Of a DNA stretch of 43,736 bases, positions 1,066 through 2,635 are shown piece after piece; position 1 is the stretch's first letter; every line of letters begins with the position of its first letter. The DNA lies in assembly GCA_025463365.1 (NCBI GenBank), contig JAOBWM010000114.1, forward strand, positions 1 through 43,736, in the 5' to 3' direction. The stretch comes from Acidimicrobiales bacterium. Its GTDB lineage: Bacteria; Actinomycetota; Acidimicrobiia; Acidimicrobiales; Iamiaceae. Under the pieces are notes generated by a model. The model was not told where the DNA came from. It saw only the letters and a program-made list of their open reading frames with translations, and did no database searches. A program made the translations under genes and the position numbers.

Positions 1066-1113
1066 CCGGGTCCCTTTCGTGCGGCAATGGCCGGACGCGC
1101 TGACGAAGATCGC

Positions 1114-2223
1114 TCAGTCGTCCTCGGGCCCGGACGCAGCATAGAACGGCCCGGTGACCGTTCCCTCCGGGATGGAAGCGCCGGGCGCCAAGGCGGCGAA
1201 GGGACCGACCTTCGCGTCGGCCCCGATCTCGGCATCGCGCCCGTTCGACTGCTCGACGACCGCCCCGGCTCCGACCACGCAGTCGACGAGGCGCGTGTGC
1301 GGTCCGATCTCCGCTCCGGCACCGACGACCGTGCTGCCCTGCAGGATCGTCCCCGGGAAGAGCGTGACGTCGGGTCCCAGCTGGACGGTGGCGTCGAGGT
1401 AGGTGCTCGCCGGGTCCACCAGGGTCACCCCGGCGCGCAGCCACCGCTCGTTGGTGCGGCGACGCAACTCGGCCTCCGCGGCCGCCAGCTGGAGGCGATC
1501 GTTGATGCCCTCGGCCTCGGCGGCATCGGCCACGGTGTGCGCGCCGACGCGATAGCCCGCCTCGCGCAGCACGCCCACGACGTCGGTCAGGTAGTACTCG
1601 CCCTGGGCGTTCTCCGGGCTGATCCGCCGCAGCGCAGGGGCCAGGACCGAGCGGCGGAAGCAGTAGACGGCGGTGTTGATCTCGTCGATCTCGAGCTCTT
1701 CAGGCGTGGCATCGGCCTGCTCCACGATGCGGGCCACCTGATCGTCCTTGCCCCGCACCACGCGGCCGTAGGCGCCGGGATCGGGTACGCGGGCCGTGAG
1801 CACCGTGCACGCCGCGTCCGACGCCCGGTGCTCGGCCACCAGCGCGGCGATGGTCGCGGGTCGCAGCAGCGGCATGTCGCCCGGGAGGACGAGCACGTCG
1901 TGGCGATCGCCCTCGGGGCCGTCGTCGTCGGGCAGGCCGGTCAGGCCGACGCTGGCGGCGTCGCCGGTCCCCATCTGGGTGTGCTGCTCCACGAACGTGA
2001 GGTGCAGGTCCGGTTCGGCGGCCTGCAGCTTCTTGGTGACGCGCTCGGCGCCGTGCCCGACGACGACGACCACCCGTCCGGCCGAGCAGTCGGCCAGCGA
2101 GTCGAGCATGTACTGGAGCATCGCCCGGCCCGCGAGGAGGTGGAGCGGCTTCGGGCGGGCGGACCGCATCCGGGTGCCCTCGCCGGCGGCGAGGACGATG
2201 GCCGACAGTTCTCGTTCGGACAT
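1114..2223 (-). CDS. glmU: Short GlmU: N-acetylglucosamine-1-phosphate uridylyltransferase lacking the acetyltransferase site
   Basis: Normally bifunctional, acetylating glucosamine-1-phosphate and then making UDP-GlcNAc for peptidoglycan. The N-terminal uridylyltransferase domain is intact: LAAGEGTRM (11-19) with Lys25, QMGTGDAA, LPGDMPLL, and the GEYYLTD region. A left-handed beta-helix begins near residue 250, but the protein ends at residue 369 where about 456 is usual. It stops just where the conserved GNFVEVKK segment and the acetyltransferase catalytic residues should follow. The FARLRPGA motif has also become FAALAPGA, losing its arginines. The start is ATG at 2223; a longer reading frame upstream shows no homology. 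A TAGACC hexamer sits 7 bases before the start. The uridylyltransferase call is firm; loss of acetyltransferase activity is inferred from the missing residues. Confidence 0.93.
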   Translation of the reverse strand: MSERELSAIVLAAGEGTRMRSARPKPLHLLAGRAMLQYMLDSLADCSAGRVVVVVGHGAERVTKKLQAAEPDLHLTFVEQHTQMGTGDAASVGLTGLPDDDGPEGDRHDVLVLPGDMPLLRPATIAALVAEHRASDAACTVLTARVPDPGAYGRVVRGKDDQVARIVEQADATPEELEIDEINTAVYCFRRSVLAPALRRISPENAQGEYYLTDVVGVLREAGYRVGAHTVADAAEAEGINDRLQLAAAEAELRRRTNERWLRAGVTLVDPASTYLDATVQLGPDVTLFPGTILQGSTVVGAGAEIGPHTRLVDCVVGAGAVVEQSNGRDAEIGADAKVGPFAALAPGASIPEGTVTGPFYAASGPEDD

Positions 2224-2559: not shown

Positions 2560-2635
2560 TGGCTCGGGGGGCAGGACTCGAACCTGCGACAGCCGGCTCC
2601 AAAGGCCGGTGTTCTACCAACTGAACTACCCCCGA
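2560..2635 (-). tRNA. tRNA-Gln (anticodon UUG)
   Basis: Read on the minus strand it folds into a full cloverleaf. The 7-bp acceptor stem is TCGGGGG/CCCCCGA, the D-arm has AGTTGGTAGA, and the anticodon loop CTTTGGA is closed by CCGGC/GCCGG, giving anticodon TTG. The T-arm contains GGTTCGAGTCC. The 3' CCA is encoded (2560-2562). A TAACGT hexamer at 2647-2652, 11 bases upstream of the mature 5' end, is a plausible -10 box. It stands alone; no other tRNA is in the window. Confidence 0.96.

What the first reader, a model, noticed from the sequence alone, without database searches (positions are those of the whole stretch)
1114..2223. GlmU with no acetyltransferase active site
The uridylyltransferase domain is intact, but the protein ends at residue 369, before the catalytic residues of the acetyltransferase. 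The arginines of the last conserved motif are also changed (FARLRPGA to FAALAPGA), suggesting loss is old rather than a recent nonsense mutation. The 48 bases to prs hold no remnant. Bacteria need glucosamine-1-phosphate acetylation for UDP-GlcNAc, so another enzyme or a separate acetyltransferase should exist in this genome.
Basis: partly seen in the sequence, partly recalled or inferred. Interest (0 to 1): 0.6.

Follow-up and report, generated by a model that had tools for sequence, protein, structure and literature searches.

The report
GlmU without acetyltransferase, replaced in trans
Across an order of bacteria (Acidimicrobiales) a cell-wall sugar enzyme has lost one of its two usual activities, and an unrelated small acetyltransferase found in nearly all of the genomes examined is the best candidate for having taken that step over.

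Summary
Window 1114-2223 (-) encodes a 369-aa GlmU with an intact uridylyltransferase domain that stops before the acetyltransferase (AT) active site. It is no local mutation: 49 of the 119 order genomes (Acidimicrobiales) that matched were read directly, including finished ones, and all end early. Most GlmUs of other orders in the class are full length.

No second GlmU and no order-wide stand-alone GlmU-type AT was found.

A 144-aa GNAT-fold protein ("c6", own genome contig C204) is the best replacement candidate. It is in 75 of 77 order genomes with a GlmU match. Outside the order, eight genomes of one family lost the AT domain independently, at another point, and all eight have c6. Five of the other 114 class genomes have it, four of them one genus with full GlmU.

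c6 carries the Glu-Asp pair of eukaryotic GNA1, but fold comparison does not single GNA1 out. Activity and substrate (GlcN-1-P or GlcN-6-P) are unproven. The best precedent is Mimivirus. Phylogenetically these are about two losses, so the link is suggestive, not proof.

The parts
1114..2223 (-). short glmU, 369 aa, monofunctional GlcNAc-1-P uridylyltransferase (stop codon at 1114-1116)
1504..2223 (-). uridylyltransferase domain (about residues 1-240)
1171..1461 (-). truncated left-handed beta-helix stub (about residues 255-351), about as conserved as the N-domain among the 30 closest order proteins
   Evidence: Hexapep match; per-column conservation
1177..1200 (-). FAALAPGA, where full GlmU has the AT-site arginine (LRPG)
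1141..1155 (-). TGPFY, terminal motif shared (with variants) by the closer order relatives and by part of the divergent ones
1066..1113 (.). 48-base gap between glmU and prs

Best explanation
In Acidimicrobiales GlmU became a monofunctional GlcNAc-1-phosphate uridylyltransferase by an ancient loss of the acetyltransferase half (the loss is shown by sequence). The acetylation step was taken over in trans by an unrelated small GNAT-family enzyme, c6 (own genome G000:C204:29036-29467, minus strand, 144 aa), acting on glucosamine phosphate with acetyl-CoA (inferred). If c6 is the enzyme, I judge GlcN-1-P slightly more likely as substrate (about 55%, pathway order unchanged, because GlmM shows no visible change) than GlcN-6-P (about 35%, eukaryote-like order) or UDP-GlcN (about 10%). 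A second lineage of the class (part of family f31) has the same gene and lost the whole AT domain independently.
For: Truncation across the order. No other GlmU in the own genome and no order-wide GlmU-type AT (weak, diverse hexapeptide matches of 54 bits or less in 39 of 61 genomes). c6 came out of a clustering of 87 GNAT matches in 6 order genomes, 5 of 6. It is in 121 of 124 order genomes, and in 75 of 77 of those with a GlmU match. Outside the order c6 is strong in 13 of 122 class genomes: 8 of f31, all with GlmU ending near position 240 of 452; 4 of f42 with intact GlmU; and G395. The f31 short GlmUs group with full-length f31 GlmUs, not with the order (6 of 8 rows). c6 is strongly conserved (72% mean column identity over 38 named members) and its AlphaFold model has a GNAT fold at pLDDT 96.5. 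Its invariant Glu-Asp pair (IEDVVVD) aligns with the T. brucei protein 3fb3 and corresponds to the Glu104-Asp105 that bind the sugar hydroxyls in C. elegans GNA1 (PMC3413214 passages). The profile finds GNA1 structures at E 2e-8 to 4e-4 (3fb3 as GNA1 is recalled). Precedent: Mimivirus pairs a GNAT with a GlmU-N-like single-domain enzyme (PMC9614988 passages).
Against: Only about two independent losses, so the genome counts are not independent trials. c6 is missing from 2 of 77 order genomes with GlmU (G122, G145; 170 and 120 contigs; four genus-mates of G145 have it) and from G217. c6 also occurs in 4 f42 genomes and G395 with full GlmU, and in 8 genomes of other classes, 7 of them with full GlmU, so it must have some use beside GlmU. 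The fold search does not prefer GNA1 over other GNATs, and the best PDB profile match is 1z4e, not a GNA1. c6 lies next to a PAC2 gene in the order loci looked at, not next to glm genes. Four other GNAT clusters are in 6 of 6 genomes, including G122, and were not tested outside the order. No activity is known.
Confidence: 0.62

Rival explanations
1. Another GNAT supplies the acetylation, for example the fast-evolving c4 cluster (motif LPGDR.TKN), the c2 cluster, or a broad-specificity enzyme, and c6 co-occurs for an unrelated reason.
For: c4, c2 and two further clusters (RimI-like and MshD-like by eye) are each in 6 of 6 sampled order genomes, including G122, which lacks c6.
Against: c4 is poorly conserved (25-38% identity to the first row), unusual for an essential cell-wall enzyme. 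c2 resembles phosphinothricin-type GNATs (by eye, not scanned).
Confidence: 0.2
2. A stand-alone left-handed beta-helix acetyltransferase, diverged beyond the profile, works in trans with the GlmU stub.
For: The stub is conserved among close relatives and could be a docking surface. Hexapeptide proteins exist in the genome.
Against: The AT-only profile gave no order-wide partner: 22 of 61 genomes had no match at E <= 1e-6, and the matches are weak and differ from genome to genome. The two in the own genome look like sugar O-acetyltransferases (by eye). The f31 clade and the order genomes G330 and G356 lack the helix stub altogether.
Confidence: 0.1
3. No de novo acetylation: the cells live on salvaged GlcNAc, or build walls and sugar nucleotides without it.
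For: Part of the order also lacks a recognisable GlmU (19 of 96 order genomes, none at E <= 1e-30).
Against: glmM was found in 14 of 14 and a GlmS homologue in 13 of 14 order genomes checked, so GlcN-1-P is apparently made. Many members have genomes of 3-5 Mb. The uridylyl motifs and the stub of the short GlmU are conserved.
Confidence: 0.05

Closest known systems
Bifunctional bacterial GlmU (TIGR01173)
   Same: N-terminal uridylyltransferase motifs and the start of the left-handed beta-helix
   Different: AT catalytic residues and about the last 100 profile positions are absent
Mimivirus UDP-GlcNAc pathway (L619, L316, R689), PMC9614988 passages
   Same: a GlmU-N-like single-domain uridylyltransferase combined with a separate GNAT acetyltransferase; L316 acts on GlcN-6-P and, five-fold less preferred, on GlcN-1-P
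   Different: viral, activities measured; R689 is 255 aa (like the f31 form) while the usual order form keeps a helix stub; relation of c6 to L316 not tested
Eukaryotic GNA1 (glucosamine-6-phosphate N-acetyltransferase)
   Same: GNAT fold, Glu-Asp pair, similar size
   Different: no cysteine in the c6 consensus; fold search does not single GNA1 out; substrate unknown
Apicomplexan GNA1, PMC5838249 (abstract, sections 7 and 8)
   Same: precedent for an independently evolved GNAT in the GNA1 role
   Different: eukaryotic, rescues a yeast GNA1 mutant; no bacterial GlmU involved

Membership tests
Bifunctional GlmU | uridylyltransferase active-site motifs | tested here: met
   GTRM Arg, PK Lys, GTG Thr, YGR Gly, IVE Glu and the GD.PL Asp in 30 of 30 order proteins; the Asn of E-x-N in only 25 of 30, the window's included (31 of 32 full-length)
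Bifunctional GlmU | AT active-site Arg, Lys, His, Tyr, Asn and later Lys | tested here: not met
   Arg and Lys in 0 of 30 order proteins; the other four without counterpart (a non-matching letter in one row at the Tyr and at the Asn); all six in 32 of 32 full-length class proteins
Bifunctional GlmU | profile score above the NCBIfam cut-off | tested here: not met
   354.5 bits, cut-off 366.85
Monofunctional GlcNAc-1-P uridylyltransferase | intact N-domain without AT | tested here: met
Monofunctional GlcNAc-1-P uridylyltransferase | measured uridylyltransferase activity on GlcNAc-1-P | not testable with these tools
   needs purified protein
GNA1 (for c6) | GNAT fold | tested here: met
   PF00583 E 1.7e-15 for the named c6 L292; AlphaFold model; the listed Foldseek and VIA matches are GNATs
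GNA1 (for c6) | Glu-Asp pair that binds the sugar hydroxyls | tested here: met
   E79 and D80 invariant in 38 of 38 named members, aligned with IEDVVVD of 3fb3; role from PMC3413214
GNA1 (for c6) | conserved active-site cysteine (not directly involved in catalysis in C. elegans) | tested here: not met
   no Cys in the c6 consensus; the cysteine from PMC3413214 passages
GNA1 (for c6) | closer to GNA1 than to other GNATs | tested here: inconclusive
   GNA1s at ranks 4 (3fb3), 11 and 18 of Foldseek among many other GNATs; profile E 2e-8 to 3fb3 but better to 1z4e and three others
GNA1 (for c6) | acetylates GlcN-6-P | not testable with these tools
   enzyme assay needed
Stand-alone GlmU-type left-handed beta-helix AT | order-wide homologue of the AT domain | tested here: not met
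   22 of 61 genomes without any match at E <= 1e-6

The most novel reading that the evidence does not exclude
Bacteria of the order Acidimicrobiales, and independently part of one family outside it that holds the same gene, make UDP-GlcNAc by an acetyl-first route like eukaryotes: a GNA1-like GNAT acetylates GlcN-6-P, GlmM converts GlcNAc-6-P, and a monofunctional GlmU finishes. Gain of the GNAT by horizontal transfer then allowed repeated loss of the GlmU acetyltransferase domain, with genus g88 (f42) caught in the two-enzyme state.
Probability: 0.25. Interest if true: 0.78.

Novelty: new variant of a known kind. Interest (0 to 1): 0.64.

Why it matters
UDP-GlcNAc synthesis is usually treated as uniform in bacteria, and GlmU's acetyltransferase as an antibacterial target (general knowledge). 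An order in which GlmU has lost that half, with a second independent loss in its class, breaks the rule and gives a natural series (no GNAT; both enzymes; GNAT plus truncated GlmU) for studying how an essential step is displaced. If right, 'bifunctional GlmU' would be a wrong label for the order, and a conserved GNAT that reaches no NCBIfam cut-off (two members scanned) gets a testable function.

Tried and rejected
Rejected: sequencing error or recent nonsense mutation. Second GlmU in the genome (next matches are 71 bits or less). Hexapeptide proteins at C218 and C32 as AT (look like O-acetyltransferases by eye; not order-wide). The 1152-aa GlmS homologue next to glmM as carrier of the missing activity: Pfam finds only SIS and GATase_6; G014 and G055 have short GlmU with normal GlmS, and G003 has the long form with full GlmU. 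Change in GlmM as a sign of a new substrate: no fixed difference in 13 order versus 3 outgroup sequences, GGEQSGH loop in all 16 (a weak test).

Checked as possible counter-examples: ten further class genomes outside the order gave GlmU matches weaker than 1e-140 without being f31-short. Six of the seven I examined are cut by a contig end (G009, G098, G119, G183, G191, G257); G127 is in two adjacent pieces; G170, G178 and G276 were not examined. Seventeen class genomes outside the order had no match at 1e-30 and were not followed.

Led nowhere or weak: the fold search could not rank GNA1 above other GNATs. A degenerate DNA pattern for the HL.Y motif had no match in the window. PHROGs had one weak match of unknown function. 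Literature: the listings, judged by title and abstract start, showed no paper on GlmU of Acidimicrobi* or on a GNAT replacing GlmU's acetyltransferase in bacteria; the library holds open-licence papers only, and the two papers holding both words were not opened. An early ORF extraction picked wrong strands and was redone; one search failed on a script error and was redone. Rows dropped because the pattern did not find them: one search lacks L073, L278, L279 and the four f42 rows; one search lacks L235, L375, L377, L378, L380 and L349; one search recovered the f31 and G395 rows by tblastn.

Full report
1. The observation. Window 1114-2223, minus strand, is an open frame of 369 codons. The protein matches the GlmU profile TIGR01173 at positions 2-344 of 452 with 354.5 bits, below the cut-off of 366.85. 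The own genome (4.31 Mb, 219 contigs, 98.4% complete) shows no other GlmU: the next matches are partial, of 71 bits or less, among them two hexapeptide tails.

2. Order-wide, not local. In 296 genomes of the class, 96 are of the own order: 77 have a GlmU match, with best E between 3.1e-110 and 5.5e-33, and 19 have none at 1e-30. Of 183 matched genomes outside the order, 166 score 1e-140 or better; 17 are weaker, 7 of them the f31 genomes of paragraph 4, and the rest mostly cut by contig ends where examined (see Tried and rejected). With the window protein as query, 119 of 148 order genomes match; 117 of the 119 align to residue 337 or beyond, and G330 and G356 stop near 257. I read the protein ends directly in 49 of the 119. 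The 30 best matches give 360-376 aa. Nineteen further ones, chosen for divergence or finished assemblies (G002, G014, G027 and G190 are single-contig), give 255-404 aa. The complete genome G406, outside that search, gives 319 aa. None of the 20 proteins has the HL.Y or NYDG motif of the AT site. The 32 full-length class proteins are 460-506 aa. Six uridylyl residues are intact in 30 of 30; a seventh, the Asn of E-x-N, in 25 of 30. The AT Arg and Lys are replaced in all 30; G214 of the second set keeps the Arg. In the 30, the helix stub (residues 240-360) has mean column identity 0.73-0.83 against 0.74-0.81 for residues 1-240; the last residues are variable (0.41). A TGPF(Y/F)-type end is shared by the close relatives and by part of the divergent ones. 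G330 and G356 (255-259 aa) have no helix at all. So this is an ancient, maintained, apparently monofunctional enzyme. Named c6 relatives are mostly labelled Acidimicrobiales or members of it, a few only Actinomycetota, Acidobacteria or Solirubrobacterales; the closest is an Aquihabitans MAG, family Iamiaceae.

3. Looking for the missing acetyltransferase. An AT-only profile from 19 full-length class GlmUs gave only weak hexapeptide matches (54 bits at most) in 39 of 61 order genomes and nothing in 22. glmM was found in 17 of 17 genomes checked and a GlmS homologue in 16 of 17 at 1e-50 (14 of these 17 are order genomes; the miss is G330 of the order). The two lie within a few kb in 15 of the 16. 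I then listed PF00583 (GNAT) matches in six order genomes, five small and the own one: 87 proteins. Reciprocal best hits gave four clusters in 6 of 6 genomes and three in 5 of 6. One of the latter, c6, is a 144-residue protein with an IEDVVVD motif; I chose it for follow-up because of that motif. A five-row profile of c6 was run on 246 class genomes.

4. Co-occurrence. c6 is in 121 of 124 order genomes. Of 77 order genomes with a GlmU match, 75 have it; the misses are G122 and G145 (170 and 120 contigs). Of 19 order genomes without recognisable GlmU, 18 have it (not G217). Among 122 class genomes outside the order, 13 have a strong match (E 5.2e-50 or better): eight of f31, four of f42 (genus g88), and G395, which is 8% contaminated. 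Five more have weak matches (3e-23 to 5e-15). In one search those eight f31 genomes have a GlmU ending at profile position 239-244, the helix gone. Their proteins are 248-259 aa; G394 has a TAG counted inside its matched stretch. G007, another f31 genome, has full GlmU and no c6. The four f42 GlmUs have all AT residues checked, and G395 has a full-length GlmU. A Fisher test of 8/8 against 5/114 gives 1.3e-9, but the genomes are related, and the GlmU of each of the 114 was not checked one by one. Counted as events there are about two losses, both in lineages with c6.

5. Independence. In an N-domain tree the order GlmUs form one clade (29 of 29, support 0.92). Six of the eight f31 short GlmUs form another (0.94), with full-length f31 GlmUs (L030, L266) as nearest neighbours. 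So the f31 truncation is separate, and it is at a different place. In c6 trees the f31 and f42 sequences fall among order sequences, suggesting transfer from the order. In the midpoint-rooted tree five f31 rows, the f42 rows and one named row form a clade at 0.92. In the tree rooted on two distant homologues they are mixed with 15 other rows at 0.81. Treat this as suggestive. c6 lies beside a PAC2-like gene in order loci I read (named by Pfam in one, by eye in the others) and in other surroundings in f31 and f42.

6. Outside the class. Of 396 phylum genomes, 54 have c6 at 1e-25: 45 of the order, one f42, and eight of other classes. Seven of those eight have full GlmU and one (G635) a GlmU read in two adjacent pieces in different frames. 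So c6 does not by itself imply GlmU truncation; it looks permissive and mobile.

7. What c6 is. Profile search of the PDB gives GNATs: the top match is 1z4e at 9e-15. GNA1-type entries are 3fb3 (T. brucei; GNA1 identity recalled) at 2e-8, C. parvum 6yug at 4e-6, C. elegans 4ag7 at 5e-6, 3cxp and 2huz at 1-2e-4 and Arabidopsis 3t90 at 4e-4. Among the five printed alignments only 3fb3 shares the Glu-Asp pair. In C. elegans GNA1 these residues bind the 3- and 4-hydroxyls, Lys136 and Arg164 the phosphate, and Tyr149 stabilises the leaving thiolate (PMC3413214 passages). c6 has invariant Tyr127 and Arg141 that may correspond; that mapping is by eye. Its consensus has no cysteine. The model is a confident GNAT, and the structural neighbours do not decide between GNAT functions. 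In the two c6 proteins scanned no NCBIfam cut-off is reached; the best is RimI, at 41-44 bits against 86.

8. Mechanism. Shown: loss of the AT site, retention of the uridylyl motifs, presence and conservation of c6. Inferred: c6 acetylates a glucosamine phosphate. GlmM carries no visible change, which favours GlcN-1-P and an unchanged step order. GNA1 resemblance favours GlcN-6-P. Mimivirus L316 uses both, preferring GlcN-6-P, and works with R689, a GlmU-N-like protein (PMC9614988 passages). That virus is the closest described arrangement I found. The listings showed no paper on such a system in bacteria.

9. Verdict. Observation confirmed.

Noticed in passing
own genome G000:C57, locus L133:5470-8928 (-), protein P0002: The GlmS homologue next to glmM is 1152 aa instead of about 610. 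Pfam finds only SIS and GATase_6, and the C-terminal part matches no family. Frames of 812 or more occur in 11 of 13 order genomes with a match and in G003 of another order; G014 and G055 have the normal size.
   Followed up: partly
order genomes G039, G059, G075, G181, G187, G202, G205, G211, G242 and others: 19 of 96 order genomes show no GlmU at 1e-30 although 18 of them have c6; G406 (one contig) has a very divergent form. The uridylyltransferase itself may be replaced or far diverged there.
   Followed up: partly
L455 (G356) and L456 (G330), family f90 of the order: GlmU of 255-259 aa with no helix stub at all: further shortening within the order.
   Followed up: partly
L218:1215-1760 (-) and orthologues in five other order genomes (cluster c4): Fast-evolving GNAT in 6 of 6 order genomes with motif LPGDR.TKN, in the own genome beside a NUDIX gene and two proteins without any Pfam match.
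   Followed up: partly
L262-L265 and L381-L384 (family f42): Full-length GlmU with all AT residues checked, together with c6: a possible intermediate state before domain loss.
   Followed up: yes
G635:C21:872727-874036: GlmU read in two adjacent pieces in different frames in a c6-bearing genome of another class; frameshift or split gene not distinguished.
   Followed up: no
order GlmUs L061, L069, L073, L074, L076: The Asn of the E-x-N motif of the uridylyl domain is Cys, Gly or Ala in 5 of 30 order proteins.
   Followed up: no
window 2560-2635 (-): tRNA-Gln (TTG anticodon) upstream of glmU, the only tRNA found in the window.
   Followed up: no
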